Origin: Acytostelium subglobosum LB1
Lineage: Eukaryota; Evosea; Eumycetozoa; Acytosteliales; Acytosteliaceae
NCBI RefSeq assembly: GCF_000787575.1
Contig: NW_012236521.1
Location: forward strand, 266,924-330,923
Reading direction: 5' to 3'
DNA length: 64,000 bases
The position numbers were made by a program, and so were the translations under genes. Positions 35,942-61,377 of this stretch are shown piece after piece. Below the pieces are notes generated by a model, which saw nothing but the letters and a program-made list of their open reading frames with translations, was not told the DNA's origin and did not search any database. Every line of letters starts with the position of its first letter. Position 1 is the stretch's first letter.

Positions 35942-38900
35942 TTATGCAGTGGTGGTTGATGGCGCAGCAGCGTCATAGGTTAGACTAAAGTATGGATAAA
36001 GGATGAGGTTGTTCTTCCAGGTCATTGTGATGGTCTTGGTCAGACTGCCACTGATATATGGTGGTACTTGGCAAGACAACAACTCAGTGCCGTCCAACAG
36101 TTTGGTGCAGATCATTGCGACACCATCGACTGTGATCGATGCCAGACCTTGTCCATAAGTATCCTTCATCAGAATGGTACCTCCGGTTTGTGGTACAGTG
36201 CTGGCACCGTTGGCAACAATCATGGTTGGGTCCAATATCTCGATGGAACCATTGACAAATGCCGATTGATCAATTACCAGCTCTGTCAAGTTGGAGTGAA
36301 CTGATGTCTGGCCAACATTATTGGTCAATACCAATGTCTTGTTGGAGATTGTCGATTGAATAATTGACCAAAGTGTAACTGTTGCGTTGGGTGTTGGTGT
36401 GATTGTTGGGTATACTATCGAGTTGAACATGGTCCATGGATATTGACCGTAGGGTAGTGTGATCACTTGGTCTCTGGTGCTGTTGAATGTCTCCAATGTG
36501 GTTGAAGCATTGAGTGGCAGTGAGGAGTTGTCAACCTGCGCTACAATGAATCGTGCCATTGATGCTGTCTGATTGGCATCAGCGTAGAACACTGGGTATT
36601 GGATGGTGGTGGTCTCACTGGTGTTGACTAGGGGGACAAATCTGTTCTGTATCATTGGTGTCAAGGTGTTGTTGGCACTGGCGAACGAGAGTATGGCGGT
36701 TGAGGGTGGCACGTCAACAGAGACATTGACTGGGAATTGAGTGATACTCAGATGGCGAATGATTGTCAGGCCCGAGACTGGATTCCTTGACTTCACCATC
36801 AACTCTGTTGTCGATATGTTTCCAAGAGTCTGATTGCGTTCGGCATCATCCAACAGACCATTCATATTCGAATCGATGTACAATGTTGTGTCCAAAGTCT
36901 GGTTGAATTTGATTGTCAAGTTACCATCAGTCAAGTTGGTCTTGCAGTATGAATCAAACTATAAAGTTTGAATGAGTTGGCAGTCATGTTAGTGATTGAT
37001 TGATTGATCGAGTGCAATATAGCATAACATACGTTGAATACCAAGTTGGAACTGGATACATTGGTAATACCATAGTCGGTAAGGTTGAATGATCCATAGC
37101 AAAGGTGAACTAGTTGGTTGGTGTCCAGTGCACGTACGGTGCCATTGCATCCAAACTCGTTAACGAGCAATACAGAGACGTTCTTGGCAATGTTGGAAGT
37201 AGGTGTGAGTACTATATCATGGTGGATGGCAACATCAAGTGGGAGGAGCAGTCTGCCAGCTGGCAATGAGATGATGTTCACATTGTATGATCCAACAGGA
37301 TTGACAATATCTAATGAGTAGTAGCCGGTGACGTCTGATGATGTCTGGATGGGCGTGGATAGGGAAGGTCCAGTGACCTGGATCATCACATTGGGAAGAG
37401 GTTGATCAGTCTGCTCCTCGTATTTGTTGTCGGTGCTATGGTCGATGAACAAATAACCGTTCAGGTGAGCTGCAAATACTGGGATGCCTGTAGTCGAAGC
37501 TGTGGTTCCAGATGTGGTAGATGCAGATGTTGATGCTCCAGTGGCCGAGGCACTTCCAGAGGTTGTCGATGGAGATGTTGTGGATGCGCCAGTTGTCGAT
37601 GCTGTCGATGGAGATGTAGTTGATGCATCGGTGGTCGAGGCACTTGACGATACGCCAGTGGTCGAGGCTGTCGATGGAGAGGTTGTTGATGCATCAGTGG
37701 TCGATGGGGAGGTTGTTGACACGCCAGTTGTCGATGCAGTGGATGGAGATGTAGTTGATGCGTCAGTGGTCGATGGGGAGGTTGTTGACACGCCAGTTGT
37801 CGACGCAGTGGATGGAGATGTAGTTGATGCATCAGTGGTGGACGGAGAGGTTGTCGAGGCTGTCGAGGTAGTTGAGACTCCAGAGGTTGTTGAGGCATCG
37901 GTGGTGGTCGAGGCACTTGTTGATGCGCCAGTGGTCGAGGCTGTCGATGGAGATGTAGTTGATGCATCAGTAGTCGATGGGGAGGTTGTCGAAGCAGTCG
38001 TTGTGGTTGTGCCTGTGGATGGTGATGTTGTCGATGGCGAAGTTGTTGAGGCGGTGGTGGCAGTTGTGGTTGATGGGGATGTTGTAGATGCTGCGGTGGT
38101 CGATGGAGAGGTAGTTGATGCGCCAGTGGTCGATGGAGAGGTTGTCGAGGCTGTGGTCGTAGTCGAGACTCCAGTTGTTGTGGATGGGGAGGTTGTCGAT
38201 GCAGTAGATGGAGATGTAGTTGATGCGCCAGTTGTAGATGGAGAGGTAGTCGAAGCGTCAGTGGTCGATGCAGTGGATGGAGATGTAGTTGATGCGCCAG
38301 TGGTCGATGGAGAGGTTGTTGATGCATCGGTGGTCGATGGGGAGGTTGTCGAAGCGGTCGATGTAGTTGGGACTCCAGTCGTAGTGGCGGCAGTTGTAGA
38401 CGGAGATGTTGTCGATGGCGAAGTTGTTGATGCATCCGTGGTCGATGGAGAGGTTGTCGAAGCGCCAGTGGTCGATGGTGATGTTGTGGAAGCGCCAGTG
38501 GTCGAGGCTGTCGATAGAGAGGTTGTCGAGGCTGTCGTGGTGGATGGCGACGTTGTTGATGCATCAGTGGTCGATGATGGGGAGGTTGTCGAAGCTGTCG
38601 TAGTAACTGGGGTTCCAGTCGTTGTGGCGGTTGTGGATGGCGAAGTTGTTGAGGCAGTGGTGCCAGTTGTGGTCGATGGGGAGGTTGTCGACGCAGTTGA
38701 TGTAGTTGGGACCCCAGTTGTTGTGGCGGTAGTTGTTGAAGGCGAAGTAGTTGAGGCGGTGGTGCCAGTTGTAGTCGATGAGGAAGATGTAGAGGCTGTC
38801 GTAGTAGTTGGTGCAGTTGTACCAGCAGTAGTCGATGGTGAGGTTGTCGAAGCTGTCGATGTAGTAGGGACTCCAGTCGTTGTGGCGGTAGTTGTGGATG

Positions 38901-41900
38901 GCGAAGTTGTTGAAGCGGTGGTGCCAGTTGTGGTCGATGGAGATGTTGTTGAGGCGGTCGTTGTCGTGGATGGTGAAGTTGAGGTTGTGCCAGTTGTAGT
39001 TGTGGAGGTAGTGGATGAGGAGTTTTGGTAAGTCATAGTGTAGTATTGCAATAGTTGTACATTGTTCCACAGCATGGTCACTTGCTTGACAAGTTCTCCA
39101 CCTCGGTAGGCTGGTACGGTACAAGTGACATTGTCCGACTCTGGTGTGGTGTAGCAATCAATGGTAACACCATCAATGATCATCACAGGCTGTGCAATGA
39201 ACTGATTATAGCGCTTCTTGAACGTGATGTTCTGGCCAGCCTGTGGCACATCGATCGATACATTGGCCAAAAGGGTAGGGTCAAACACCTCGATCCAATC
39301 ATAATCAGTGATGTTGAATGTGTACTGCATCGTTGTGTTCTGGTTCAAAGTCACATTGCTGCCAAGTGCTGCTGTGGAGGTGAGCGCGATCGACTTTGTG
39401 GACGTGGGTGCCACGACGATCTGTGTGTGTGGTGGCATCCAGCCAACACTCTGGAAGTATGAAGTCCTGAAGCGGCCATAAGGTAGTGACACTGATGGAG
39501 TTGTTGAGTTGGCCGATGCCAACATGGTGATTGTGTTCTCGGACTTCTCCTCATAGTATCCATAGTGCACTGGGGTGGGGTTGGCTGATGGCGAGACGAC
39601 CAGACCCTGGACCACGGGGACCACGGGTGATGTCTGGTTTCCAGATAGGGTGGCGCGGTATGTGATGATGGCGTCGGCTGGCACATCGAGTGTGACCAGC
39701 ACCGGGAGCGAGGTGACCTGGATCGTGGTGTTGACGGCAGAGTTGTACTGCGTGGAGTTGGAAATGATTGTGATCTGTCCGTTCACGGGCAGGCTGGTAG
39801 TGGTCTCGTTGGCATCCATCATTCCATTCATGTCCTGATCAACGTAGAGTTGGAGCTTGATTGACTGCGCGTAATTGATCGTTACCAGTGGTCCACTTCC
39901 AATGAGGGTAGACTGGCATATTGGGTCAAACACCGACGACGATGGTGTCAATGGTGATGGCGCGACAAAGTTGAAGTTGGACAGATTGTATGTGCCATAT
40001 TGCAGTGTGATCGAGTTGCCCTGTGCGTCTGTGAGTGTGCCGACACAGCCCTGCTTGGACCTGGTGAACTTTGCAAAGTTGACAATCACCCTTGCGCCGG
40101 GATCGACTTGCACCGTACGTTGAGTGATCGGCATTATGTGCTGTGGCTTGGTGTTGACCACGGTGACAGTATGTTGGCCAGGAGTAAACGTGGCGTAGTA
40201 ATATTTGCCATTGAAGTCTGTTGTCAAGTTGGTAACGTGGCCTGTTGGATCAACAATGAGTACAGTGGTGCCATAGTCCAAACGATCAATTCCAGAGTCG
40301 TATACATTGTTGAAGTTGTTATCAACATATACAATGCCCTCGAGTTCTGACACTGATCCAGCACCTGTTGTAGCGCCAGTCGTGGTTGTAGCTCCAGTCG
40401 TTGTGGATGGTGATGTTGTCGATGGACTGGTGGTAGATGGGCTGGTGGTGGAAGTAGTCGAGGCGGGACCAGTCGTTGGGGTGGTTGTGGTTGGGGTTGT
40501 CGTTGATGGGCTGGTGGTGGAAGTGGTCGAAGCGGGGCCAGTTGTTGGGGTGGTTGTGGTTGGGCTTGTCGTGGAAGTAGTCGAGGCTGGACCAGTTGTT
40601 GGGGTGGTTGTCGAGGGACTGGTAGTCGAGGGACTTGTGGTCGTGTCAGTGGTCGAGGCTGGACCGGTAGTTGGGCTGGTTGTCGCCGGACCTGTGGTGG
40701 CTTGACCGGTTGTGGTGGTCGAAGCGGGGCCAGTGGTTGGGCTGGTCGTGGATGGACTTGTTGTGGCTGGACCAGTTGTTGTTGTGGTCGAGGCTGGGCC
40801 AGTTGTTGGACTGGTGGTTGATGGACCAGTGGTGGCAGGACCGGTTGTGGAGGTGGTCGAGTCAGTAGTCGAGGCAGGGCCAGTTGTTGGGCTGGTCGTG
40901 GATGGACCAGTCGTTGGACCGTTGGTAGTTGTCGATGGATTGTTGGTTGTTGTGTCCGTTGTTGTTGATCCACCATCGGTAGTTGAGGATGGATTTGAAC
41001 CACATGGATTGATAGCTGGGAAGTTGAAGATATTGCCAAAGAAGCTGGTGATGCCTCCCAATCTGCTGGTGATCTGCAGTGCACTTCCAATGACAGCGTT
41101 CAGGCTACATTTGCCCAGTGGATCGGTCATCCATCCGAGTTTAGGTGGCGAGGGCAGTGTGATTGTGGGTGGCAATATGTCGTCAAAGTCAAAGTTCCAA
41201 GGGATGGGGTCGCGGGTCTTGAAGATCATGTCGGTGGCCGTGAATCTCCATGGTGTTGGCAAGCCAGTCACCACTCCAATGGGTATGGTCACGACGAATG
41301 TCACGACTACTGTGCCAATCTTGGTCACAGGGTCGATGATAACCGAGGTCGTGGTAATGATGTCAATCACAACTTCTCCCTCAATCTCTGGTGTCTTGGT
41401 CTTGTCTGGCTCTTCTGTGCTTCCAGAGTTGGAATCTGATGACGATGAGGACGAGGATGAGGAGGATGATGAAGAGTCATCGTCGCGATGAGTGAATGTG
41501 ACGGCGTTGGATTGGCGCGATTTGAAGGTCACAACGACATCCTTGGGTCCAGCGGCAGCGGGCGCGATGGTACATGTGAGCGCTGTGGCATCGTATGCCA
41601 CAGTCTCCATGGGACATGCCACACCACCGACTGTGATGGTGGATGTTTGGCCAAACAGTCCGAGGTCAGTACCCTTGATGGCAATGTGGGTGGACTCGCT
41701 GACTCCGCCATCGGATGGTGTGATCGAGTCAATATGTGGCGCACGGAATGAAAAGTCTGAGTTGTCATTGCTGCGCTGATCGCCCAAAGTGACGTACAAG
41801 TTGATGTTGGTGCCCCATCCGCGTGGACAAACAAACACAATCATCGTGTCGTTGGACGAGGTGATGCGTTCGGCGTGGCCGTTGAAGTACACACTGAGCA

Positions 41901-44900
41901 CCGAACCATCCTCACGGAAGTTGTGTCCATTGATTGTTACGGCGTACTGGCCAACGATTGAACCGTCGGCGGGCGAGATTGAGTCGATCTTGGGTGGGCC
42001 ATAGTATGTGAAATTGACCTGTTGGGTGGTCGAGCGGCCATCTGCCACAGTGACCACAACCAGCGCGTCACCTTCAGTGCTGGACGCGGGGGTGGTGCAG
42101 ACGATGGACTCGTGCGTGCTTGAGAGGATGGTCGTTGCGACGTTGCCAATCTTAACCGATGGGTTGAGGCCATAGTTGGCTCCGGTGATTGTGGCGCGCG
42201 TGCCACCTTGCATGCGACCGCGGTTAGGCACGATCGAAGTGATGTTGGGCGCATCGTATGAGAAGTATGTGTTGGTGTCGGATTCTTGGCGGCCGGCAGT
42301 GACCTTGACGCGCTTGTCCACACCCTCGCCACTTGGCACGGTACAGACGGCGCGCGAAGCATTGATCCAGGACACGGCCAAACATTGGAGATCGCCTACA
42401 AAGATTGAGTTGTCCGCTGATTGGCCTTGGGCGGTGGTCGCGGTGGCCAGTGGGCTGGGGACAAAGTTGGCGCCGACGATTGTGATCTGCACACCACCCT
42501 TGGTCGGGGCGTGGTAGTCCAGGTCATCGACTGATGGCTTGTTGTACGACATGTTGTACGTGCCCTGTTGGTTGGCGATGTTGACGCGCATGGGGATGTT
42601 GGCGCCCATCCCATAGGGTGCGAGACATCTGATGGTCTGATGGTCGACCCATGTGGCGTTTGCGCATGTGCGCGAGTCTGTGGCCGATCCAATCTCCACA
42701 CTAGAGTTCTGGGCGTCGACACCTGTTGGCACAAAGTTAGCACCAGTGATTGTGATCAAGCTGCCCTCTGTGTCAGAGAGTGTGGCCGCGGTAACCTGTG
42801 GTGCGTTGTAGGAGAAGAATGTGTTGGCTGCCTCGATGGCCTGGAAGCCGACTGTGACGTTGACGATCAACTCCTTGCCAATGCCCTTGGGCACTACACA
42901 CTCCACCTTGTCCTGATCGATCCATCTGATTGATTGACATGGGGTCGCGCCTATAATGACTGTGAAGTTGGCGTCGGGCTGTGGGTGCTGGGTGTTGATG
43001 TCGTTGGCGAGGGACGCTGGCACAAAGTTGGCTCCGGTGATTGTGACGTGTGCGCCACCCTCGGTCGGGGAGACATAGGGTCCCGAACTGACAGTGGGCG
43101 GGAGATAACTGAATGTAGAGTTGTCAGTGTTGAGCTGTCCCCCAACTGCCACGTCCAGACTGAGGTTCTTGCCGACACCCGCTGGCACAGTGCACACCAA
43201 CTGCGCGGACGACACCCATTTCACCGGGGTGCACAGGTGGCTGTTGATCGTCACGTTGCTGCGTGTGACTCCGCCATCAGACACATTGGTTGGCACAAAG
43301 TTGTGGCCTTGGATGGTGATGTTGACGCCGCCAGGAGTTGGTGCGCGTGGTACCAACGTCACGTTGGGCGCGTTGTACGCAAAGTTGACAGTGTTTGATG
43401 GTTGATTGCCGATTGATGTCATTATAGTATGATTGCGGCCGATGCCTGGAGGCAGCTGGCCGATGATGAATGTCGAGTTGACGAATGACACGTTGTGCAG
43501 CATCACTGTGCCGTCCATTGTTACGTTTGTGTAGTTGGCTGGGCCTTCCAGTGGAGCGTCGGTAAGGTTGAGACCAGACTCGTGCACCTCCACGATCAGC
43601 TCGTTGGGAACAAAGTTGTCTCCAATCAAAGTGATCTGAGCGCCACCATCCGTGTCACTATCACTCACTGATGCGTTGGCAATCGATGGTGCGATGTAGC
43701 GCAGCTTGTCCTGGGCGATGTCACCTCCCGAGTACAGGCCAACCTCGACCACAATGTCGCGGCCAATGCCTGGGTTCATCCAGCAGCGCACACAATCAAA
43801 GTCCACGGTGCGGCGGAACGAGTCGTTCAGAGAGATGTACGGGTCGAAGTTGTCGATGCTGATCGCCACATCAGGGCTCTGGGCGGCGGGCACAGGTGCC
43901 GGGGTGTGGCCGTCAGCGGCAAAGTATTTCTTGTCCATATAGCAGTTGTCGTGGTCGTCCTCGCACTCAAGGTCGACCGTGGCATCGTATAAGAACACGC
44001 TAGGCATCAGACCATCGCGCACTCCCAGGTTGGTTCCGGCGATCCAGAACAGGGAGAAGTAGGCTGTGGGCATGGGCGGGTACACGATCTGGAGGATGTG
44101 TGGACCCTTGTACGACAGGATGAAGTTCCTCTCCTGTGACACCTGGTTGTCGACCACGACGCGTACCGTGGACAGCGGGTTGGTTCCAGTTGGCGTGAAA
44201 CACGTTGCCAGGGTATCGCTTATGATTATTGATGGCTCACAAGGGTTCTCGGCAAGGAGTATGGAGAACTCGGTAGTGGTGTCTGGCGCGCCAAATGACG
44301 AACCTTGGACAGAAATTAGTTGTCCACCTCCATTGTCCAAACTGATCATTGGTGTGATTCCCGTGATCTTTGGTGCAGTAAAGTTGATGAAGAATTGATT
44401 GAATGATAGATCATTGGATTGCTTGGCGACTGTAACTGTTATCAGTCTTCGGGGGTTGATGGTGTGAGTATGCATTTGAATGTGTGAGTTTGCATTTGAG
44501 TTTGAGTGGATCTTTTTGGTAATACATACTTGTTCAAACCTGTACCCTTGGCTTCAAAGATGAAACCCTGACCTTGGTAACTGTCGACTATGTGTTGGAC
44601 TATGTTCTCAACTTGGACCGTGATGTCTGCGATTGTGGATGTGTATGAGAAGAAGCTGGATCCTGTAATCGTCACCAATGAGCCAACTGTTGGCACTGGC
44701 TCCACTGGCATGATCACTTGACTAATGTAAGGTCCTACATGATTGAGTGTGAGTGTGAGTGAGTGATTGATTTGGTGAGGGGTTGGAGTGATTCCAAGAA
44801 CATACTGTAATATGCAAAGATCCAGTCACGAAGTGGTCGCTCGGCGGGTAGCCTGGCTTGGGAGTTGTAATAGGTGATTGGTAGGATACCAATGCCATCG

Positions 44901-47900
44901 GCCAGGTTGCACACCATTGATTGATCGTATTGATTGTAGTAGGAGTTGGAATAGACGCAGTCCTTGTTGCCAAATTTGAATGTGACGCCATCCATGGCCA
45001 AGTTGTGACCGATGACTGTGATGGCACTGGATTGATCGGTGGGTCCGTCCAGCGGGTCGATCGAGGTGACCAAGGGGCCGACCTCACAGTGCTCAAGGGG
45101 GATGCCGCGCTTAAAGTCCGCCAGCGAGGTGGTACCCACCCAGCACAGATGGTCGTTGTACTTGGTGACGGCGACGCCTGTCGAGACCCAGTTGGTAGTG
45201 TCGCCAAAGAAGTAGGTCTCAATGTTGCGCGAGTACTGGAAGGACATGGTGGCGTGGTACAGCTGGTTGGCGAGCACGCGGGTGAATTGCACCATGGACT
45301 TTGGCAGCGAGTCCTGGCCACAGCGGGCCGTGTTCAGGCTGTTGACAAGCGACACAAGCACTGGGTCGCGGGTCTCCACGGGTTGAGTGATGAACTTTAC
45401 CAAAGTGTTGTCGACCACATTGTTGCTGTATGATACCCATTGTTGCATGGCCTCCTGTATGGACTCAAGTGAGACTTGATCGATCTCACTCTGGCACACG
45501 CCCAACGAGATGAGGTACTGCTGGATGGAGGTGGGATCGGTCACCGGCACAGGTGCGGCCTGGCACGACGTAGCACACATGTAGATCTGGTCATAGTCCA
45601 TTGTGCCTTGCACTTTGCTGACGGTTGTGGCGGGCATTCCCTGGACCATTTGAGCGGTAAAGTCGCGAGCATTGGTGGGCTGCTGAGCCTCGGGTTGCTG
45701 GCCAATGCGGTACAATGATTGAAGTAGTTGAGCGAGTGAGATTGTTGGGTCTGGACTGTTGTCGTTGGCGCCAGAGTCTGGGTTCTGGTCCAACAGGTCC
45801 CAGAAGAAGGCTGTAGTCCAGCCCATCGACATTGGTGCATCTTGAGTGGCATTATAATTCTCATAGTCTACCCATTGACCCGAGCAATCAGGGTCAAATG
45901 ATTCTTTGAGATGTTGTGAAAGTGATGGGAGTACAAGCTGAACGAGTGTGCATGTGGGAGGGTGGTGTGAGTTTTCAACTCCAGTTTTCAATTTGAGTTT
46001 GAATCAATCAATCAATCTTGTAACTTACACTCTTGTAGTTCATGGCGATGGATGTGACGAGACCATGCACAAGGTCCCACTTGGCTGCGGCGACGGGATA
46101 GGTGGCGGAGGATGGACGTGAGGTCCAGCCAATATCGAAGGAACGATCGAGTTGAGCGACGACATCATAGGCGAACGCTTGGAAGATGGAGTCCATACAG
46201 AATGACTTGATGACGGGACCATTCGTGCTCATGCGGCCACTGAAAAAGGCGTCAGATGTGACAAAGATGCTGCGGGGTGACGGCGCACCCATTGGCCACA
46301 CAGTCTGGCGCACGTCATGCAGCCACTGCAACACACGGAACAGCACGACGTAGTCGTCGGTGAAGTAGGGCGAGTAGGCACCCTGATCACTCATGTCGCG
46401 CGACGGCTCAGAGATGGTGGCGTTGTTGTCGTCGACAATGGTGATGTCGCGACCCTGGTCGTGCAGGAAGATCAGCACGAATGGCTTGAACTCCTTCTCA
46501 AATGAGAATTGAGCGTAGTCGTCCGAGCGGTACCAAGACTGCTCGCTCATGGCGGCCAGACATGAGTCACTGCACCAATGGTTGGTGTTGTAGATGCTCA
46601 GGTCGGTGTTGGGCAGCAATGAGTCGGGGAATGCTGCCATGTACTCAGCGATGCTCTCGGGCAGCATGGGCGACTCAACGTCGATCAACAACTTGCCCTT
46701 GATGAACTGTGTGGCCTGGAAGTTGTCCAAGTCTGCACAATTCGGCTGGCCAACGCACATCGAGTTCTCATAAGTCTCAACAGCACGGATAAAGTGTTGG
46801 GCCAGTGGGACATCGCCTGGAATACAGATGATCAATCTTCCCATGTACTAGGGGTGAGGAGGGGTGGAATGATTCCAGTGTTAGCATGTGAGATTGATTG
46901 AGTAGTTGATGGGTGAGTCCGAGGACTTACATTGAGCTGATGGTAGTTTGAAAGACAGACGACTGCGGGCGACTCGGATACAGCGAGTTGAGCCTCATCA
47001 ATGTCGAAGGACCATTGGGAGAGCGAGGGTGGGATCGAGAATTTCTTGGAGAAGTCAGGGGAGAGCTTGGTGCTCGTGACAAGCATGTTGCCATTGGGTG
47101 TTGGATCGCGACGTGGCTGAGTCATCTGGAATCCAAATGATTGAGAGAGTACCCAGATGTCGTCGCCATGACTGCCAGTCATCTGTATGTCGTTGTCCGT
47201 GCTCTGAGCAAAGTGAGCTGCGGCCAACAGTTGTTGATTGAACACTGGTGCCAAGACAGAGGGGAATGGTTGATTGAGTGGCGAGATGTTTGTGCGGTAG
47301 ATGTAGGGGTAGGCCTGCGAGAGCACAGTGGCCACCGAGCTGAGCGCGGTGAATGTGTGGCAGAGGAAGGCGTGGCCGTGAGACACGTCGGCCGCGAGAG
47401 TGGGGTCGCCCTGCAGATGGTAGTCGTGGGGCATCCATCCATTGGTGCCCGGCAACTTGAACAGCGACTTGTCGATCGGTTGACCCGGCACATCGTTGGG
47501 CACGGGGAAGCCGGCCATCGAATTGCAGGATGTGGAAGCCCGGGTTGCCCGGGGTGTTGGGTGCGTAGGCCAGGATGCCCCTGGCTGCGCATGTGGGTGG
47601 GGTGGCGACGCCGGCCACCGGCGTGTCCATCGTGCCGTCATCCTTCCACGGCATGTCATTGTACATCAAGTACTTTTGAGATGTTATCGATGCGAGTGTC
47701 TGTGCCAAACTCGAGTTGGACGCGGCCAAATTGTCAAAGACGACGATATCTTCTCTGCTGCTGTCTGCATATATATATCGCTGGGTGAGCGGCAACTTGC
47801 GAACCAGCCACCAGGTCACCGGTTGTCCGGCACCCGACAGGCAGCTCTGTGCCTCTATCACACTAGCCACTACTACCAACATCAGGCAACATAGCATTAG

Positions 47901-48786: not shown

Positions 48787-51700
48787 ATGACGCGAATAAG
48801 TCTACTTCTGGTCTTTATTGCCCTGTTTGTGTTGGCTGTGCATGCACTCCCACCGGTGCTACAAACCGTGGAGCCACAGATAATGATAGTACGTGGTGGC
48901 AGGTTTAAAGTGGCCGGAACATCAATTAGGAGCAATGTCAATGTGCCCCAAGCAAAGCTACACAACCCAAGTGGCGCGGTGATGGTCACCTTGCCAGTCC
49001 TCTACGACGTCGACAACGTACACTTCTACGTAGATGTGCCCAATCTGGAGGCAGGAGGCCTCAACCCCTCGGCCAACTCGATCTGGGACGCCAAGCTGAC
49101 GCTGACCACCGACGACGGCCAGTCCAACCCGCTGGACGTCACATTCTTTGCGCCTATGATCACCAATGTGGCGCCTCTCCAGGGCTTCGAAGGCACCGAG
49201 ATCGTCGTCTCTGGCTACAATCTGTATGCTGGCNNNNNNNNNNNNNNNNNNNNNNNNNNNNNNNNNNNNNNNNNNNNNNNNNNNNNNNNNNNNNNNNNNN
49301 NNNNNNNNNNNNNNNNNNNNNNNNNNNNNNNNNGTGTACCGCCCCTCAACCTTTGCCGGAACCAGTCATTCTCGGTGAGCCCGATGACCGTCGTGGTCAA
49401 CGGCCAGCCCGAGTATCCACCCAATGGCAACTTCAAGTTCATGTACACCGAGCCCATCATCACCGAGGTCACTCCATCATTGGGACTGACCCAGGGCACC
49501 ACAACTCTCCAAATCAAGGGTCTCAGTCTACACACTGCCACTGGCGTCAGCATTGGCTTTGACTTCTACGACAACACACAATTCCAAATTGGCCTCTTTA
49601 GCACCATCACACTCTTGGCACGTCCACAAGCTGGACCCACCCAACCACTCGCAGTCTCAGTCACAGCTCACAGCTACCGATCCAACGCCGACAAGACATT
49701 CCAATATGTTGGTATGTTTGACCTATCATTGTTTGATTGATTGATCGTGCTTGTACTAACACTCCCACCCCACTACCTCCAGAACCAACAATATCTATAC
49801 CATTGGGAATGGGATGGTCCATTGGTGGATATCAGGTGGGCGTCCAGATGGTGAATCCATTGTATCCACCAACTGTATTCATTGGCACACAACAATGTCC
49901 TATTACAACTGTGTTGCCAGCAGACCTTACTGGTAACGTCGGCTTCCAATGCACAGTTCCACAATACATGGCAATGGATGCTTCAGTCAAAGGTGTATTG
50001 CCAATCAGTTTCACAGTCAACAATCAACATTATGCCACGACCAAAACATACACCTACACTGGTAAGTGATCATATCATCACTGGAATCATTCCAATCACT
50101 CACTCACTAATTCATCCTCATATCATCACATTAGTGCCCAAGATTAACTCTGTGACTCCAAACTTTGGATGGGCTCAGGGTGGAACTGAGATTGAGATAC
50201 AGGGTGATTTCATGTTGACAAGTGATCCAAATAGATTCGTGGTTCAGATTGGAACTCAGACATGTACCATCATACCTGGAGCATCGACTGCCACATCACT
50301 CAAGTGTATCACACCAACATGCGTCGGTCCAGTTAACCCGGCTGGTGAAAGACTCATCCTATTCATCGACGGACAAATATCCGAGAACTACATCTCATAC
50401 TTCTACCAAAGTATGATTCATTCACTCAATCAATCATTATCACATGACTGACTAACATGGAATGATTCCACCCCACTCCCCTCATATTAGTCCCAACCTT
50501 TGACTTCAATCAAAAGTTTGGATATGCTAGTGTTGGAGCCAAGTTTACATTGACATTGCCAGTGAAGAATAATGCTAATGATCCATTGCCCATTGTTAGA
50601 ATGATTGGTGTTGGTAACTGTGTGTGCACACCTCAGGTCACCAACGACGTGCTCGACTGTGTCGCGCCAAAATTAATTACAACAAACTCCATTACTGCTG
50701 TGGATTTGGAGTTGGAGTATCCCAATGGCATCAAGGTGCCATCGAGCAGCCAGTTCAGTCTGGTCGTTCCAACACTCGACGCGATAGAACCCAACCTTGG
50801 AGTGATGGCTGGTGGCTCCATCATCCAGCTCAAGGGCACCAACTTCATTCTAGGATCCGTTGTCGCCATCACTGTTGGCACAGTCACTGTCCCACCACCC
50901 AAGATCAACCAGATCTCTGACACGATCATCAGTTTCGAGCTGCCTCAAAGCATCAAATTCAACTCAATCGATCTCACCGACAAGTGCATCATCAATCTCA
51001 AGCTCAGCAACCAAGATGCATACTCTGCTCTCTCGACCGCCAAGGAGTTCTTCTACTATCGTATGTCAATCACTCACCCAAACAAATGATGGCTGGAATC
51101 ATTCCAATCAATCACTCTATCATTCGATCACTCAATCAATCACACTTGGATTCATTCCCAACAATTAATCACACATTTGATCATTCAAACAATCACTCAT
51201 GCACTCATATACTCAATCAATCACACTTGGAATCATTCCCATCAATCATACTAACAATCTCATATTAATAATAATGTAGAGCCAACTGTTGAGTCTGCTA
51301 ATCCTAGCACAGTGATTAATGGTGGCGTGGTCGAACTTGATGGCCAATTCCTCAAGCACACTCAGTCTGTGATGGTGGCTACTGTTCCAGGACGTGATCC
51401 CGCATTCTCTGCAGCATGCACATCTGTTGAGTTGTTTGACATCACAATGGACTCATTCGATCTCAGTGGCAAAGTTCGTTGCCAACTCCCCACTATCCCC
51501 ATTCTCGGATCATCCGAGCAACTACTCATCTATTCCATGATCGATGGCAAGCCATCCACCAAGCTAGCCATCACTATTGTTAGTATGTTGACTCAACTCT
51601 GATCGCCCCACCCCTCATACTAATACTCAATAACTGGAATCATTCCAATTAACAGACCCCGTTTTGGTATCGATCACACCTCCAGTTGGACTTAACAAGG

Positions 51701-54700
51701 GCACGACTAAGGTGGTAATCAAGGGTCAGTACTTGACCAAGGTTGATAAGCTCACTATTGGCGCCGAAGTCTATAACTTGGCCCAGATCGATGTGATCGA
51801 TGATGCTACCATCGAGCTCGACGTCAAGGAGCCCGCTGCAGCCCTCGACATCACCAACCCATTCGCCGTCACAGCCAGTGCTGGCACGATCAATTCCAAC
51901 AACGACAAGACCTTCCAATACAAAAGTAAGTGATCACGATCAGAGACCAAACCCCGGCCATTTACTAATCCGCTCATTCAATCACACATTGTAGCACCAA
52001 CAATCACACTCACTCAAACACATGGATGGTCCATTGGAGATGGTATTGTGGACGTTACGATCGTAGACCCATTGTACCCACCAACTATATTGATTGGCGA
52101 CTTGTTGTGTGTGCAACAGGGTGTGTTGCCAGTAGTCTACCTTGGCAACTACCAGGTCCAATGCAAGACCCCACCATACACCGCCACAGACGGCTCGACA
52201 TCTGGTCCACGCCAAGTCAGCTTCATTGTTAATGGCCAACGCTACAACAGCCCCACTCCCTACAACTATGTCCTACCATCGATCACCGGTCTGAGCATGC
52301 CCAGCAGTGTGACCAATGGCGGTGCCAACATCGACATCGATGGTCTCAACTTCATGGCCCCTGTCGTAGTGTACGTTGGCGACACGGGCGTGCTGTGTGG
52401 CGCTCCCACCTTTGTGTCCAACATACTGATCACGTGTGACTTGCCCGCATTCCCAGCGGGCGCCACCACGATCCAGGTTGAGTGCAATGGTGTCAAGTCT
52501 AACAAGTTCCCATTCACCTACACTGGTGTGTCGGTCACCGACATCGAACCCAAGCACGGCGACAAGCTGAACCCCGGACCCGTAACCCTCAAGGTCACTG
52601 GAACAGGCTTTGGCGTGAACGCTGCCGCTGTCACCGTGACCATTGGTGGCCTCAACTGTCCCATCACTGCCATCATCAACACGGAAATCCAGTGCACCAA
52701 GCCCGTATCGCCAGTCACCAACAACGCTGCGCCGGTGGTCGTCACCCGCGGAGCGAGTACCTCGCAGGACGTCGTCAACTTCAACCTGCACGGACTCGAG
52801 TGTCTGGGCTATCCAAACGACCGCGCGCCCGTTCCCTGGTGGTTCTCATACAAGATCAGGAAGTCCGAGCACTTCCTGTACTACGACTCCAACAGCCAGG
52901 AGTTCGCGCTGCACCACGACATTGTCCTGGCGACCAACCACCTCCACGCGACATTCGAGCAGCACCTGTATGGATACTACTACCTATTCTACAATGATCA
53001 GCCAGACATCAGAGGTAGCAAGGGCAGCAAGGGCGGCTATGGCCACGCCAAGGGCTTCTTCATGTGGGAGCATGATGGCACGGGCATCCACGTGATCCAC
53101 TCCAACCCGCAGTTCCCACGTGAGCTCGTCGGCGACGTCTATGACTTCACGGTACAAGGCTCCAACAACAACAACCAACACTTCTTCTGTTATAAGTTTG
53201 CACCGACTGGACTTGACCGTGTGGCCCTCTACGCACTGCGCAATCATGTCTTCTTCTATCCCCTCGACAACCTGCCAGTCCACCCACCACCTCCCGTTGG
53301 AGGCTTCAACTGGGGCAACTACCCCAACCTGGACAATCTGGTCAACATCAACAATGATGGTGCTATGAAGGCCCTCGCTGCTGTAGGTATTTCGATTGAT
53401 TGATGAGCAAACTCGAAACCAGTTTGCTAACTCAAACTCCCTCCACACACAACAGGCATGCCTCGTTCAAAAGGCTTCGAGCAATATCTTGTTGAACTTC
53501 TGTTACTGGGTTGGTCCACAATTCACTATCAATGGAATGAATGCAAACTACTTCATGAAGACTAATATGAAGACTCCGCCAACTTATGTTGCCGGTCGCC
53601 AGGTACAGGTGACAGTGGCCGGCCATCCTCAAATCTTGGCCGTCGATCAATTCGTCGTGGACAACCCCAACAAGGTCAACACCTACGAGGGCATTGACAT
53701 TTGGCAGGTGATCACCAATCACTACGGCCAGAGCATGTTTGTCCAGACCTGGACGTCCAAGGAGACCAAGTTGGACTCGGTGCCAAGCATTGCCAATGTG
53801 GAGGTTGTTCGTATCCCTCGCAACCTCGTCTTCAACATGGCTGGTGAGGACATGGAGGCATTCTTCCCGCACAAGAACGACCATTCCAAGATGGCTTACA
53901 GTCTCCTTGCCAAGACCACTAACGCTGGTGCCAACGACAACATGTTCTGTGTTGGTGATCTAAACCGTCACACTGGCCAAGGTAAGCGTGGTGGTGGAGC
54001 ACTCTGTTTCCAACACGCTGGTCTCGTCTACCAATTCAATCGTTTCGTTCATGGATACTCAACATACGTAAGTCTCTCTCATTCTCACACTCAATCACTC
54101 GTACAATCACTCTGGAATAATTCCAGTCACTCAATAATCACTCACAACTCACTCAAACACTCAATCAATCACTGGAACTATTCCAATCACTCATCATTCA
54201 ATCAATCAATTACTAACTCCAAACTCTCCAAACAGGGCTTTAACCTTCACAAGAACCAAGACTGGATGGCTGCCGATGGTGGCTTCATGACTTACTTGTC
54301 TGTGTTTGACCTTGTCACTCCTACCCGGGTACAATTCTCATCCAAGGTCAAGAGTTTGAATAATGCCGGCTATCCAAACTATTTGTCGCCTCTCGTTGCC
54401 AACGAGCGTCCACAAGAGAACGAAGGCTACGTCGTCTACGCTTCGCCAATCCAAATGCCAATCCAATTCACCATCCCGCCCACCGAAGCCTGGGCCAACC
54501 CCATCTACTTTGAGATCAAGGACAGCATCTGGGACACGGTCAACGCCCAGGAAGACACACTCAAGCGCCTGCCCGCCTACACCCAGAACGTGGCCGTCAA
54601 CACGCTGTACCAGGTGGACAACATGAATTCGCTGCGCACGGTCGGTCCACAGAACACCATGGTCATCAGAACAATCCCCAGGACCAAGACATTCACCGCC

Positions 54701-57700
54701 GGCGCGACCACGATCAATCCCAGCGGTGGAACGCACGTCGACACTGTGACCACCTTCACCCCCATCAACCCCAACATCGTGCAATCCGCACAGGTGCTCA
54801 ATCAGCTGCAGATAATGCCCGCCGTTAACGCGGGCCCGAACCAGCAAGCACTCAATAGGGCTGCCGCGCACCAGTTGGTCAACCCGCGAACTTACAACGA
54901 GTACGATGTGGAGACGATCGTCACGGTGGGCTTCGAGTCGTCGCCAAATGGCAACGTCAGTCCGCTGCTGGACATCCGCGCGCATGATGTGTGCGCCGTG
55001 TTCTACATCGCACACGATCCGGCTGTTGCCACCATCTGCACGCTGGTCGATCTGCAGAACGACATCAACCAGCCGTGTGTCCCCGCTGTCGCCCTGAGCA
55101 ACCATCTCACCGCCACCGGCGCGCCCGCGCCACCCGTGTTCCCCAACGTCCGTGCCCCTCCCAACCCCGAGGTCATTGGACAGCGCGACTATGACGTCTT
55201 TGTCATCCCCACGTTCTTGTGCATCCGCCATGTGTTCAAACTGCGCACGGCCATCACCCCGCACCTGGGCGGCGTGGTCCTTCCCACGCTCTACCCGGTC
55301 GTGATCGACCCGTTGCACGTCAACAACCCATACGCCCAGGTACCCGACCACAAGATCATGGCCACCACCGTGGACTGCCTCGACGAGATCACCTACAACA
55401 TCCTGATCGACGTGATTGGCGCTGAAAAGTTCGTCGGTGTGCCCACCTGGAAGCACGCGATTGTCCTGGCGCTGGCCAAGAAGATCAACGTCGACGAGAT
55501 GGCCATGACCGCAGGCCTGCAAGTGTGCTTCGACTTTGGAAATGACATCGCGGGCGACTTGAACTCGTACGTCGGCGCCGACCCGTTCTACACACAGGCC
55601 AAGGTCGTTTGGGAGCTGATGAACGAGCTGCGTGTCACCGACCCGGCCTCGGTCTTCTCGTGGGACGCTGTGTTCTCGGCCTTCCTGAAGCTGCACCCGC
55701 TCGAGAACATACACTCCATCCCAGACTTCTTCATGAACAAGATGGGTGTGCCCATCTCTGCGCAGAACCTCAAGATCATGGTCGACGAGGGTGTCTTTGT
55801 TCCTCCACCCCCCAACGTCGTCGACAGGAAGCGTGCCGCTGCCATCTTTGGAGGCGGCGGTGGTATGCCATTCGTCCACTTCCTCAAGTTGGCCGCGAGA
55901 CTCGGTGCTGGCCCTGCCCCAGCCCCAGCCCCAGCTCCAGCACCCGCACCAGGACCTCCTCGTCCTGGCAACCAACGTACATTCCCCACAGCCGTACAAT
56001 TCCTCATTGACTATCCAGTTACCTTTGAGGGCGAGGCCGTTGCCGCATTGTCAGACCGCCAGATTGGTGTTCTGGACCAGGCTATGGCCAAGTGGGCAAC
56101 ATTCAACCACGTCAATCAAGCCGCACGTGTCCTTCTCTGGGACCAAGCACTCAAGACCAGCAACCAGGAGATCAAGTTCTTGGACGAGATCACACTCACA
56201 TTGGGCCACGATGGCAGCTACCCCATGGCACTGTGCTACTCTAGCACTCACATTGAGTTGTGCTCGCCAATGTCCATAGTCACCGCCACCCTCACACTTG
56301 AGCGCATTGTCATCAACACCGCCCCTGCACAGACCCTGCTCATGGGCGACCTCTCGCTCTATTACTATGCGCGCCCGTCCACCTATGACGGACCTGTGAT
56401 GGCTGGCGTCGATGGTCTGGCCATCGCCACAATCAATGGCCTACTTTGTGATATCCGCATGATCGCCTCTGACTCGTTCGTCCCCGACAATGCCGTGCTC
56501 AACAGCTTGTGCCCACAACAATCTGGCGTGGTTGCCAATGTATCGGCCACGGCTGGTACCACCCAGGGTGGCGACACCCTCGTCGTCACTGGCTACCGCT
56601 TCACCGGAGGCATGGCCGTGCTCATTGGCGACGTGCCCTGCACTACCACCACCCTAGTCTCACCAAACGAACTCGACTGTGTTGTGCCCCCTGGCGCAGG
56701 CCGCGATCACCCCGTCAACATACTCACATCGGCCAGAGGCAAGGAAGCCACCGGTTTCTACTACTCATACAACCGCCCTGTTCTCGGACAAATAATGCCA
56801 GGCGCTCTGGTCAGCACATCAGGCGCAATGATCACATTGCTCGGCAGCAACTTTGGAGTGGACGTGGCCAATGTCACGGTGACGATCGACAATGACCGTC
56901 CTTGTGTGCCACTCCAACTCATCTCGCACGAAGAGATCCGATGCCAGGCCCCACCAGCGGTCGGCGCCTTCCACTTTGTCAAGGTCACCGTCGCAGGCCA
57001 GTCATCACGACTCGGTGTGCAGCACCTCTTCACCGATCGCTACCTCACCGCACCCGCCAGCATCACCTCGATCAGTCCCATTGCGAGCCAGGGTGGTCTC
57101 CTCCTCAATGTCACCGGTCTCAACTTTGGCAACGATGCAGCCAGCCTCACTCAGCTCACAATCAATGAAAAGTCATGTGATGTTATTGTGGCCCAGTCCA
57201 CGCCCACAAGCATCATGGCCAAGATACCATTTGGCGTACACCCTGGCACTGTGTCGGTGAATATCGCCGGCCTTGCTGGCGAGCCCTTCTCCGCATTCCA
57301 GCACTCTACGCCATTCCTCAACACAGCCAACATCACACTGCCTACAACTGGTGGCGTCATCCAACTCAATGGAGGTTCATGGCCCATCTCGCCCAGCGCC
57401 ATCGACTATGTACGTTTGAACGCAACATTCGACATCCAGTGTGTGCCATTCGTCACGTTCCTCGAGTGTACAGTGCCACCTGGTGTGGGCCGCAATGGAC
57501 AGCTCACGACATCAGTATTCCAACAGGTCATCAACACTCCAGTGGTGATATCATACCGCACGCCAACCATTCAGTCGATCAGTATCGCTAGCAGTGGTGT
57601 CACTATCCGCGGAACTGAGTTCGCGCCCAATGGACTAACGATCAACAGTGCCACAACATACGTATCATTGCTCGACTCGAACAAGGTCGAAGTTGGACGT

Positions 57701-60700
57701 TGTCCCACCACATACTTTATCGATCAGACCACGATAATTTGTCCAGACCTCCCCGCCAGCAACGTTGACTACATCAAGGTCGTCATTGGATCACAGCCAT
57801 CCAATGCCTACTTTGTTGGTATGTATTCTAACACTCTCCTGGAATCATTCCAAACACTAACTCACACTCAATCAATCAAATAGACTCCGCGATCTCTGGA
57901 ACAGTGTACATTGATTTGGATCAGAGTGCTACTTACAATGCCGGTGATACCCTGCTTGTTGGCGCAACAGTCAGCCTGAAGAACTCAGCTGGCACCGTCC
58001 TCAAGTCGGTTGTGACAACATCCACTGGCATCTTTGAGTTCCAGTTCTTGGCGCCAGGCAACTACTCGGTCAGCATCACCACCCCAGCCACCCATTTCGC
58101 TCCAATTACTTCATACAACTTTGTTGTTGTATCTGGTACATACACTGCCACCTTCTCAACATTGATCAAGAATCAGTATGGATGTGATGCAAGAATGACC
58201 TCCAACACAGGCTACGTGCTCAACCTCCAATACGGCAGCTTCGACCTCACCAAGTATGGTTGGTGCAACACCGTCACTCCATGCCTTGCCCCATCACAAA
58301 TCACAATGATACAAGATTGTGGATACCAAATCAATGGAACAATCATTACAATCTTCTACAGTAAGTACTCCTGGGATCATTCCATCCAATCCCATAAACT
58401 AACACTTACCCCACACACTCAATCAAACTCAGAGCAACAACTCAGATTCGACCTGTTCAATGATGTCAATGTCAATGGTATACATGATATATTGGACACG
58501 GGTATGGCTGCTGGATCAGTGTCAATCACTGTCAAGACTCAGGTGGCAGGATATGGTGTTGTTTCCAGGACATTGGTCTCGGCTGTCCCAGGCGATTGGA
58601 TGACTTTTACCGTTCCACTGGGCAAAGCTGACATCACCGTCACACCACTGGCCTCAACCCTATTCGTCTCGATGAAGAATAGCATGTCCTACACATTCAC
58701 CACCGTCAGTCAATCGATCGCAGACAACCTCTCCTTCTACATTTGGAACAACACACTGTTGTCGCCAGTCACCTTCTATGACAAGCCCAACCGTGTTGGA
58801 GCATCCCTCACTCTGCCCGTCGGCATCTTCGACTCGTCCATGCTCACAAACGTCGGCTGGCTCAACCGTGTCCAGTCCTTCCTCCCCTGCACACGTTGTC
58901 GCGTGGCTATCCAAGTGAATGGCACCTACACTAACGTGGCCAACACCAACGGCGCACCAGTTGTGATCAATATGCCAGCTCCAGCAGTGAGTGTCCGTGT
59001 GGATATTGCCGACATAGACATGGTCAAGGCCTACAGCGCCACTCCACTGTCCAACTTGGGCCAGGTCATCACCTTCCGCCACTCATACCTCTTTGAGCAA
59101 CCTCAGTTCAAGTCCAACAACGCCTTAGTCACCTGCACATACAACGCTGCCACCTTGATGACATCGTGTACCATCCCAGCCGGATATGGTGCCATCCAAT
59201 TCGTCGTAGTTTGGCGCGGACTCACAATGTACTCGTACTACACACTCAACTACGCACGCACTTCGCTCAGCGGCTACGTCTACCTCGACACAAACTTCAA
59301 CAACTTCAAGGACCCAGCAGAGGCCATCATGGCGGGCATCACCGTCAAGTTGTTGCCAGGCACCTTGACAGCTGTGACCGACACGACTGGTAAGTTCACC
59401 TTCATGGATGTCGTTGCTGGCACGTTCAATGTGCAGCCACAGCCAGCCGCAACCCACATCAGACCAGTAGACATACCAGTCACACTCAACGCAGCCAACG
59501 GATTCACTGCTGCCAATGTCAACGCTGGCCTTGTCCTCAAGAACACATTTGGATGTCTTGGATCTGTCCTGGTCAATGGACGCGCATTTAACTTCCAATG
59601 GGGCCAGTTCAACCTTCAGTGGTACAAGCTGTGCGACACCACTCAGGGTTGCACTATGACCTCACTCACCGTCGCCCAGCCATGTGAGGCACTGCCAACA
59701 ACAGTTTCCCCATACTACTTCACCGTGCAGTACAAGAACCGTTTGTCCATCGACATCTTCAACGACACCAATGCCAACGGAGTCAAAGATACCAATGAGG
59801 TCAATGTCGTTGCACTCAACTCTTCCAAGATGATTCTCGACTTGGTCGGAGTTGCTGGTGCCGTAAACACATTCACAATCACCGGCCAGAGTGTGTTTAC
59901 CTACAACGTCCCCACCGACTTCACGCTCAGAACTGTACCACCAACTGGCTACACAGCGACCGTCGCCGTCAAGGTGTTCAAGATCGCAGTCACAACCGCC
60001 ACAACCGTTGCGATCAAGGTTCCCATGCTCAACACACTGGTGCCAACAGTCACATTCTGGGATGCGCCAACACTCAAGGGCAGTGCGATCAATATACCAA
60101 TGGGAAGATGGAACAATATCTACCTCACCAACCTCGGCTGGAACGATAAGATCAGGTCGTTCCAAGCCCCCAACACATTGGCCGTAGGATTGTCCGACGA
60201 TACATTGATTACCACTCCTCTCACACTCTATCCCAACCTAGCTGGAGCGATTGTTGAGTTGGCCACTTCCAACACATCTCAAGTTGAGGTCATTCTCAAG
60301 TCCATGTTCACAGGCATCTCAGGCATCCCCACTGGTGGAGGCTCCATCGCCATCACCAAGCAGTATCCATACTACTTCCCTCAGCCAGTCTTCAAGCTCA
60401 ATGGAGTCGCCCTGGTATGCACAGCGAGTGCCTGCACAATTCCCGCTGGTATTGGAAGAGCCATGATCACGGCAGTCTGGAACGGACTGACCCTGTATCC
60501 ATACTTTGAAATCACCTACGCCAATCCATCACTGGGCTATCTCGACAAATCACTTTCCCAGCTGGGTGGCGCGGAACTGATCCTCATCGGATCCAACTTC
60601 CCCTCGACTCCCGCCCTGGCGGCCAACTCTACAATTAAGGTCGATGGCCAGCCATGCCAAGCACTCACATGGATCAGCACCACCAAGATCATCTGTATCA

Positions 60701-61377
60701 CATCGCCCATCACACCAACGACGGTAAACGGCAAGGTTGACTTTTACATTGGCAACCTGCCCATGGTCACTGGCACTTTCTTGTACAAAACAGTCAAGTG
60801 TCGCGGTGCCCAGTTCTTCCCCAGCCTGAGCTTTGGAGGCACGCCACAGACCGTACCGTATGGCACCAACAACCTTGTGCCCGCAACAGCCTTCCAATCA
60901 ATGCAGTGCTCTTGGTTCTGTTTCTGCCAGGTGCAATCACCCGACCCCAACTGGAACAAGAACTACAACTCCTACAACTTTAACTCTGGACACTCTGCCA
61001 CAGCCGCACAGATCAAGGTGTCTGTTGGTTACGCCAAGTGTAACACAGCCTATTTCTCCGATGTCAGTGGCAATCTGTTGAGACTTGAGCTGCCGCTCAA
61101 GACACACGACCTGGCCGCAGTGGGCTGGGCCAACAGAATCGCCAAGTTCACAGACAACAACAACATTGGTTGTAAGGTGACAGTATATGTTGGAACATCA
61201 ACGACTGGAATCACATTGCTCTCTGGCGTGGACTTTGCCAACTTCCCAACCTACTACCAAAAGATCACACGTGTCAAGGTTGAAGACTATCCCGACCTTG
61301 GAGGTGAGAATGTCACTCCATGGTCATCATCGCCAAACCTCAACCAAATGGGATCAGGAAACTATGTCAATCGTTAA
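48787..61377 (+). CDS. Giant secreted IPT-TIG / DNase II / SdrD-B / beta-gamma-crystallin-like protein, about 3,875 aa
   Basis: Eleven exons: 48787-49711, 49783-50061, 50135-50410, 50491-51060, 51280-51582, 51656-51925, 51995-53382, 53456-54067, 54236-57818, 57884-58360, 58433-61377. The signal peptide is MTRISLLLVFIALFVLAVHA. About 11 IPT/TIG units occupy residues about 25-1140. A DNase II domain follows (about 1141-1541) with PVPWWFSYKI, YYLFYNDQPD, the catalytic-type IHVIHSNPQFP, DHSKMAYSL, FCVGDLNRHT and KRGGGALC. Residues about 1542-2290 form a large unrecognised region with a GPAPAPAPAPAPAPGPP linker. Four or more IPT units come next (about 2300-2735). SdrD-B-like units (GTVYIDLDQSATYNAGDTLL; GYVYLDTNFNNFKDPAEAIM), DxNxNG loops (FNDVNVNGIHD) and beta/gamma-crystallin-like strands (VGWLNRVQSF, LGWNDKIRSF) end the protein, with one more IPT near 3590. 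There is no transmembrane anchor. An assembly gap removes about 33 residues of exon 1. Confidence 0.88.
49234..49333. other. Assembly gap (100 N) in exon 1 of the giant plus-strand gene
   Basis: Exactly 100 unknown bases, a conventional gap size, lie inside an IPT unit. The frame happens to be preserved across it, but the true length and the residues in between are unknown. Confidence 0.99.
50082..50094. repeat. Dispersed intronic palindrome TGGAATNATTCCA (first of about 12 copies)
   Basis: Perfect inverted repeat TGGAAT-C-ATTCCA in an intron. Matching or near-matching copies in the plus giant gene introns are at 50458, 51094, 51146 (degenerate), 51228, 51635, 54113, 54173, 57840 and 58372. 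Copies in the minus giant gene introns are at 46865 and 44784, and one is in an exportin-T intron at 23372. The centre base varies (C, G, A, T). I found none in exons. Confidence 0.8.

What the first reader, a model, noticed from the sequence alone, without database searches (positions are those of the whole stretch)
35942..61377. Divergent pair of giant secreted IPT/TIG proteins that also carry DNase II domains
Two adjacent genes, divergently transcribed from 868 bp, encode proteins of nearly identical length (about 3,857 and 3,875 residues). They use the same parts list: signal peptide, DNase II-type domain, IPT/TIG arrays, SdrD-B-like units, DxNxNG loops, no membrane anchor. The part order differs: DNase II is N-terminal in one and central in the other. 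The layout recalls the tgrB1-tgrC1 allorecognition locus of D. discoideum, which is also divergent and IPT-based. Combining an adhesion array with a nuclease is, to my knowledge, undescribed. One idea is a matrix or slime-sheath nuclease, possibly acting against bacterial or extracellular DNA.
Basis: partly seen in the sequence, partly recalled or inferred. Interest (0 to 1): 0.88.

Follow-up and report, generated by a model that had tools for sequence, protein, structure and literature searches.

The report
Twin giant amoeba proteins carrying DNase
Two giant secreted proteins, probably of a social amoeba and encoded back to back, each join a DNA-cutting-enzyme domain to long sticky adhesion arrays, but only one of the two still has the residues needed to cut DNA, so the pair looks like an active matrix-bound nuclease and a dead twin.

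Summary
Two divergent genes start 868 bp apart and encode signal-bearing proteins of about 3,857 and 3,875 residues. Both have a significant Pfam DNase_II domain (gene B 1.3e-40, gene A 1.5e-17) and long IPT/TIG arrays. In B the fusion needs no intron prediction: three TIG domains and the first half of DNase II lie in one stop-free exon. Corrections: (1) B's domain holds exactly two HxK catalytic motifs; A's holds none (AAR and EAQ align there), so A is very probably a pseudo-nuclease. (2) The architectures are collinear: DNase II, linker, TIG array, two homologous C-terminal modules of 422-490 residues; B adds an N-terminal TIG array on phase-1 exons. (3) A is interrupted by a one-base frame shift; B holds a 100-N gap. 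(4) The tgrB1/tgrC1 parallel is layout plus TIG domains only; no clear membrane anchor was found. Best reading: a co-regulated matrix pair, B a tethered nuclease and A a non-cutting twin. No eukaryotic homologue, expression or activity could be tested. Base composition fits Acytostelium subglobosum (inference). New variant of a known kind.

The parts
35942..47918 (-). Gene A: 6 predicted exons (47918-46931, 46847-46029, 45937-44806, 44734-44530, 44446-37033, 36958-35942), about 3,857 aa
   Evidence: introns of 71-91 nt beginning GT and ending AG; one-base frame shift in exon 1 near 47513-47534
46934..47846 (-). Gene A DNase II domain (about aa 25-329), no HxK motif
   Evidence: Pfam PF03265 1.5e-17
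47580..47588 (-). Gene A residues aligned to the first HxK motif: AAR
46988..46996 (-). Gene A residues aligned to the second HxK motif: EAQ
45080..46817 (-). Gene A linker (about aa 341-889), no domain above cut-off
41485..45079 (-). Gene A IPT/TIG array (aa 890-2036), 11 domains by local profile
   Evidence: Pfam TIG 1.7e-68 in exon 5 (9 stretches), 1.4e-6 in exon 3
40360..41034 (-). Gene A Ser/Thr/Pro-rich mucin-like tract 1 (approximate limits)
   Evidence: 60-residue windows over 60% S+T+P
39022..40359 (-). Gene A C-terminal module copy 1 (SdrD_B-like start, DxNxNG loop, TIG-like end)
37489..39021 (-). Gene A Ser/Thr/Pro-rich mucin-like tract 2 (approximate limits)
35945..37488 (-). Gene A C-terminal module copy 2
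   Evidence: Am1 vs Am2 E 1.3e-26
47919..48786 (.). 868-bp intergenic region between the two start codons (candidate shared promoter)
48787..61377 (+). Gene B: 11 predicted exons, 3,875 aa
49235..49334 (.). 100-N assembly gap inside exon 1 of gene B (limits to within a base)
49450..52791 (+). Gene B N-terminal IPT/TIG array (aa 222-1140), 8 domains by local profile; exons 2-6 all phase 1-1
   Evidence: no TIG detected in exon 5 or the first half of exon 4
52804..54067 (+). Gene B DNase II domain (about aa 1145-1541)
   Evidence: Pfam PF03265 1.3e-40; PDB 5i3e 7.1e-6
53044..53052 (+). Gene B first HxK motif: HAK
53882..53890 (+). Gene B second HxK motif: HSK
54236..56524 (+). Gene B linker (about aa 1542-2304), no domain recognised
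   Evidence: model at pLDDT 32.5 is uninformative
56525..57817 (+). Gene B second IPT/TIG array, 5 domains by local profile; best match of the gene A array
57818..60522 (+). Gene B two C-terminal modules (57818-59256 and 59257-60522), SdrD_B at each start
   Evidence: (Bm1 vs Bm2 1.9e-45)
60523..61374 (+). Gene B last TIG domain and unclassified C-terminal end
   Evidence: TIG 6e-7

Best explanation
The two genes arose from one ancestral secreted protein with the order DNase II, linker, IPT/TIG array, two C-terminal SdrD_B-containing modules. They now form a divergent, probably co-regulated pair of giant extracellular-matrix proteins. Gene B makes the working half: a DNase II-type nuclease held in the matrix by TIG arrays on both sides, able to cut DNA that reaches the sheath or aggregate surface. 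Gene A makes a mucin-rich twin whose DNase II fold has lost both catalytic HxK motifs, so it does not cut and most likely serves as a DNA-binding or partner-binding platform. Shown here: domains, order, motif retention in B and absence in A, module homology, the single-exon TIG-DNase II fusion in B. Inferred: secretion into matrix, shared promoter use, activity of B, function of A.
For: DNase_II is significant in both and in B shares one stop-free exon with three TIG domains. Two HxK motifs are required for catalysis in human DNase II alpha (title of a reference seen; the paper itself is not held). B's domain contains exactly two, HAK and HSK, at the columns of the solved bacterial enzyme 5i3e and of 48 bacterial sequences, with KRGGG downstream of motif 2. 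A's domain contains no HxK at all, whatever the alignment (0 in aa 25-350); the same columns, H and K in 48 of 48 bacterial rows, read AAR and EAQ. At columns conserved in at least 90% of the 48 rows, B matches 42 of 107 and A 29 of 107. Common origin: the C-terminal modules of A and B match in all four cross-comparisons (1.6e-21, 8.6e-14, 1.2e-12, 9.3e-16), and A's TIG array matches B's post-DNase array best (5.9e-20; best match in the N-terminal array 5.2e-11). B's N-terminal array shows duplication: exon 2 against the start of exon 7 is 45% identical (9.9e-22), end of exon 1 against exon 6 37% (5.5e-17), and exons 2-6 are all phase 1-1. Hydrophobic N-terminal signals in both.
Against: No expression, localisation or enzyme data. 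B reads DHSKM where most bacterial rows read DHAKW and carries insertions, so activity is not assured. DNase II is called an acidic endonuclease (start of the abstract of PMC11430429 in the listing), and the pH of the sheath is unknown to me. A is not wholly degraded: a histidine aligns at the third column (H in 48 of 48 bacterial rows, H in B and in A), though after a long insertion in A. Which A residues face the motifs depends on the alignment: the two-sequence alignment places other residues or gaps there, and in the profile search the A stretch at motif 2 scores below zero bits. The linkers of A and B do not align. A's frame shift may mean decay rather than a maintained pseudo-enzyme.
Confidence: 0.45

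Rival explanations
1. Both DNase II domains are non-enzymatic matrix modules: the fold was recruited for binding DNA or another polyanion, and B keeps the motifs without real activity.
For: A has no HxK motif; B matches only 42 of 107 strongly conserved columns and reads DHSKM rather than DHAKW.
Against: B keeps exactly two HxK motifs, the third histidine and the KRGGG stretch, which drift without catalysis would not be expected to spare while much else diverged.
Confidence: 0.22
2. B is a prey-digestion enzyme: a secreted or phagosomal acid nuclease that degrades DNA of engulfed or surface-bound bacteria, with TIG arrays binding bacteria; the matrix role is secondary.
For: DNase II is an acidic endonuclease (listing; lysosomal role recalled); dictyostelids eat bacteria (recalled); signal peptide present.
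Against: Giant size, mucin tracts in A and tandem SdrD_B-type modules fit matrix better than lysosome (judgement).
Confidence: 0.15
3. An allorecognition pair of the tgrB1/tgrC1 kind: the divergent neighbours bind each other through TIG domains and the nuclease domain is incidental.
For: Functional tgrB/C loci are sought as paired, diverging genes sharing one promoter (PMC12324515 passage); here an 868-bp divergent pair with TIG arrays.
Against: Tgr proteins are transmembrane with cytoplasmic signalling domains (same paper); no C-terminal anchor seen here. Polymorphism between isolates could not be tested.
Confidence: 0.08
4. Gene A is a decaying pseudogene and gene B the only working gene; the pair is a remnant of a duplication.
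For: One-base frame shift in exon 1 and absence of HxK motifs.
Against: The rest of A reads open over about 11.5 kb in the hand-built model, including one exon of 7.4 kb that needs no splice choice inside; the assembly has a gap nearby, so a sequencing error is at least as likely (judgement).
Confidence: 0.1

Closest known systems
DNase II family (Pfam PF03265; bacterial structure 5i3e/5unb)
   Same: Domain matches in both genes; B has both HxK motifs and the CVGDxNR...KRGGG stretch.
   Different: The 48 bacterial relatives fetched are reading frames of 298-468 codons stop to stop (one, L014, starts at a contig edge); here the domain sits inside proteins of about 3,850 residues, and A lacks both motifs.
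Tgr (Tiger) family, tgrB1/tgrC1 locus of Dictyostelium discoideum
   Same: IPT/TIG repeats, divergent neighbouring genes.
   Different: Tgr proteins are transmembrane; here no clear anchor was found, the proteins are several times larger (Tgr size recalled), and they carry DNase II, SdrD_B-type and mucin parts.
Dictyostelid IPT/TIG and Colossin (Cna_B) families
   Same: PMC4334915 table 2 lists 43 members of the IPT/TIG-containing group and 33 of the Colossin D/Cna_B group in Acytostelium subglobosum (section read); this pair joins both kinds of domain (that SdrD_B is a Cna_B-like fold is recalled).
   Different: No nuclease domain is mentioned in the section read.
Social amoeba extracellular DNA traps
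   Same: Sentinel cells of Dictyostelium discoideum slugs release DNA nets against bacteria (PMC4773522, passages including the abstract), so secreted DNA and a matrix nuclease could meet.
   Different: No link between that system and these genes was found.

Membership tests
DNase II (PF03265) | Significant profile match over most of the domain | tested here: met
   B 1.3e-40 in two stretches; A 1.5e-17, profile positions 6-294 of 326
DNase II (PF03265) | Two HxK catalytic motifs, gene B | tested here: met
   HAK and HSK, the only two in the domain
DNase II (PF03265) | Two HxK catalytic motifs, gene A | tested here: not met
   None in aa 25-350; AAR and EAQ at the aligned columns
DNase II (PF03265) | DNase activity at acid pH without metal (recalled) | not testable with these tools
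   needs an enzyme assay
Tgr/Tiger proteins | IPT/TIG repeats in the exposed part | tested here: met
Tgr/Tiger proteins | Transmembrane segment and cytoplasmic tail | tested here: not met
   No C-terminal window among the six most hydrophobic of either protein; hydropathy scan only, one internal stretch in A at 2092-2110
Tgr/Tiger proteins | Divergent pair with shared promoter | tested here: inconclusive
   Layout met (868 bp); promoter use not testable
Tgr/Tiger proteins | High polymorphism between isolates | not testable with these tools
   no second isolate held
Colossin-like (Cna_B/SdrD_B) proteins | Tandem Cna_B/SdrD_B-type domains | tested here: inconclusive
   Above cut-off in B, below in A; two modules each, not long arrays

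The most novel reading that the evidence does not exclude
An extracellular cut-and-hold system: one giant matrix protein carries a live DNase II and its divergent twin carries a dead one that captures or protects DNA, so the amoeba tunes how much foreign or self-released DNA survives in its sheath.
Probability: 0.2. Interest if true: 0.8.

Novelty: new variant of a known kind. Interest (0 to 1): 0.57.

Why it matters
If true, a social amoeba built a matrix-tethered nuclease by joining DNase II to its adhesion-protein toolkit, with an active/inactive twin pair flanking one intergenic region. That would tie giant IPT/TIG proteins to the handling of bacterial or self-released DNA, and it gives simple tests: assay the B domain, delete either gene, measure DNA in slime.

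Tried and rejected
Rejected: 'both are nucleases' (no HxK in A); 'part order differs' as a sign of separate assembly (order is collinear from DNase II on); separate TIG and DNase II genes in B (single-exon fusion). Linkers: nothing above cut-off in Pfam or NCBIfam; one sub-cut-off Pfam row in A's linker (Herpes_pp85, 0.012, 14.4 bits against 19) was taken as chance. In the PDB, 9 of 10 rows for B's linker, best 0.0028, overlap its Pro/Ala run and were discarded, the tenth has E 0.98; for A exon 3 the Plexin-A2 row (0.007) lies on the TIG part. The linker model (pLDDT 32.5) was not searched. The C-terminal module model is weak (pLDDT 49.9); its fold search gave 0 matches at E 0.001 or better, though TIG chains (2cxk) and scaffoldin X-module chains (4wi0, 4u3s) reach Foldseek probability 0.9-1.0. 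I suspected beta-gamma-crystallin Greek keys in the module: PDB profile rows for protein S (0.18, 0.83) and 2kp5 (0.062; its crystallin nature is recalled) are not significant and Pfam showed no crystallin match, so it is not claimed. Relatives: DNase II alignment A1 in genome contigs and viral contigs, none confirmed; plasmids, no match; no eukaryote collection was available. Whole-protein blastp of B against itself listed no internal repeat; repeats were then found by comparing pieces. One search left out exon 5 of B; it was scanned later and shows no TIG. The palindrome count used a pattern one base too short and was replaced. The protein A made lacked most of its N-terminal 135 residues and was corrected. 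Paper searches gave context or nothing of use.

Full report
What was checked. I rebuilt both genes from the DNA. Gene A runs on the minus strand from 47918 to 35942 and gene B on the plus strand from 48787 to 61377, leaving 868 bp between start codons. With hand-chosen GT-AG introns that keep the frame open, gene B gives 3,875 residues including a 100-N gap in exon 1, and gene A about 3,857. A is not a single clean frame: codon usage switches frame abruptly near 47513-47534 in exon 1. That is either a sequencing error in a gapped assembly or a real frame shift; I cannot tell which.

Domains. Pfam DNase_II matches B at 1.3e-40 and A at 1.5e-17. TIG domains are above cut-off in both. A locally iterated profile counts 11 in A and 8+5+1 in B; it was seeded with window TIG domains, so the count leans generous. 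Exon 5 of B and the first half of exon 4 show no TIG. SdrD_B passes the cut-off in B and stays below it in A. A has two long Ser/Thr/Pro tracts. The segments between DNase II and the TIG arrays have nothing above cut-off.

Is the fusion real? In B, exon 7 is one stop-free stretch of 462 codons that contains three TIG domains and the first half of DNase II; exon 8 holds the second half, and exon 9 the linker plus TIG domains. So the fusion does not rest on intron prediction. In A, DNase II reaches the TIG array across predicted introns 1 and 2. If intron 1 were retained the frame would end at 46835, leaving a short DNase II-like protein. Intron 1 has a GTAAGT donor, a CCTAG acceptor and the palindrome found in 9 of the 15 introns of the pair, which favours splicing but is not proof.

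One live, one dead. I fetched 48 bacterial DNase II loci and aligned both window domains with them. The loci were found with patterns that include the motifs and their reading frames were chosen by motif, so motif conservation among them is partly built in; the solved structure 5i3e is an independent anchor. B has HAK and HSK, and these are the only HxK triplets in its domain. A has none in residues 25-350, a result that needs no alignment. At the aligned columns, H and K in 48 of 48 bacterial rows, A reads AAR and EAQ. Against this, a third histidine column is kept in A as well as in B, and the two-sequence alignment pairs the motifs differently. His115 and His297 are described as the catalytic residues of porcine DNase II, and a cited title names His132 as a third crucial one (PMC11430429, passages); each half of DNase2 carries an HxK motif (PMC9208542, passages). 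A is therefore very probably a pseudo-nuclease, and B a candidate enzyme.

Common origin and order. The C-terminal module (422-490 residues) occurs twice in each protein, and all six pairwise comparisons are significant (1.9e-45 to 1.2e-12). A's TIG array matches B's second array best (5.9e-20); its best match in B's N-terminal array is 5.2e-11. The linkers do not align. So A and B share DNase II, a linker, a TIG array and two modules, in that order, and B carries an extra N-terminal TIG array. That array shows duplication: exons 2-6 are all phase 1-1, exon 2 resembles the start of exon 7 (45%), and the end of exon 1 resembles exon 6 (37%).

Organism. The window is 45.9% G+C, holds reading frames matching Nup98, Exportin-T, a RhoGEF and an FtsJ methyltransferase, and has a 100-N gap. 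Acytostelium subglobosum is 55% A+T, lower than the other dictyostelids compared, with 371 contigs in 106 supercontigs (PMC4334915 section 5). I infer that species; no record confirms it. Table 2 of that paper lists 43 members of the IPT/TIG-containing group and 33 of the Colossin D group in it (section 7).

Mechanism. Most likely a co-regulated pair of matrix proteins in which B cuts DNA and A binds without cutting. Sentinel cells in slugs of Dictyostelium discoideum cast DNA nets against bacteria (PMC4773522, passages including the abstract), so a matrix nuclease has a plausible substrate, bacterial or self. This is inference: expression, secretion and activity were not testable.

Compared with the known. 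Functional tgrB/C loci are paired, diverging genes sharing one promoter, but encode transmembrane proteins (PMC12324515, passages). Here no clear anchor was found by a hydropathy scan, so these are not filed as Tgr proteins. Paper searches for the combination gave nothing (0 papers, 8 papers with 0 occurrences of the DNase II domain terms); the library lacks most subscription journals. Whether other dictyostelids have the combination could not be tested.

Noticed in passing
introns of genes A and B; also 14025, 18142, 23372, 34863: A 13-bp palindrome TGGAAnnnTTCCA (mostly TGGAATCATTCCA) sits in 9 of the 15 predicted introns of the pair (11 copies with at most 1 mismatch), against 0.031 copies on average in 1000 base shuffles, and one imperfect match in 23.2 kb of coding sequence. 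Window-wide there are 8 exact TGGAATNATTCCA against 0.03 expected, 7 of them in these introns; near matches elsewhere are. Possibly an intron hairpin or splicing element.
   Followed up: partly
49783-51925: Exons 2-6 of gene B are all phase 1-1; 4 of these 5 hold one detected TIG domain, exon 5 none. Symmetric phase-1 exons are a mark of exon shuffling (recalled).
   Followed up: yes
61552-63438 minus strand: Neighbouring gene, convergent with B, with an N-terminal signal, Ser/Thr-rich stalk and a hydrophobic C-terminal tail that looks like a GPI-anchor signal (read by eye); no Pfam match at 0.01 for its main reading frame.
   Followed up: no
47919-48786: The intergenic region is flanked by inverted TGAT/ATCA simple repeats (30 nt at 97% complementarity, arms 47949-47978 and 48709-48738), so the two 5' regions mirror each other.
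   Followed up: no
C-terminal modules of A and B: Segments resembling beta-gamma-crystallin Greek keys; PDB profile rows for protein S and 2kp5 are not significant.
   Followed up: partly
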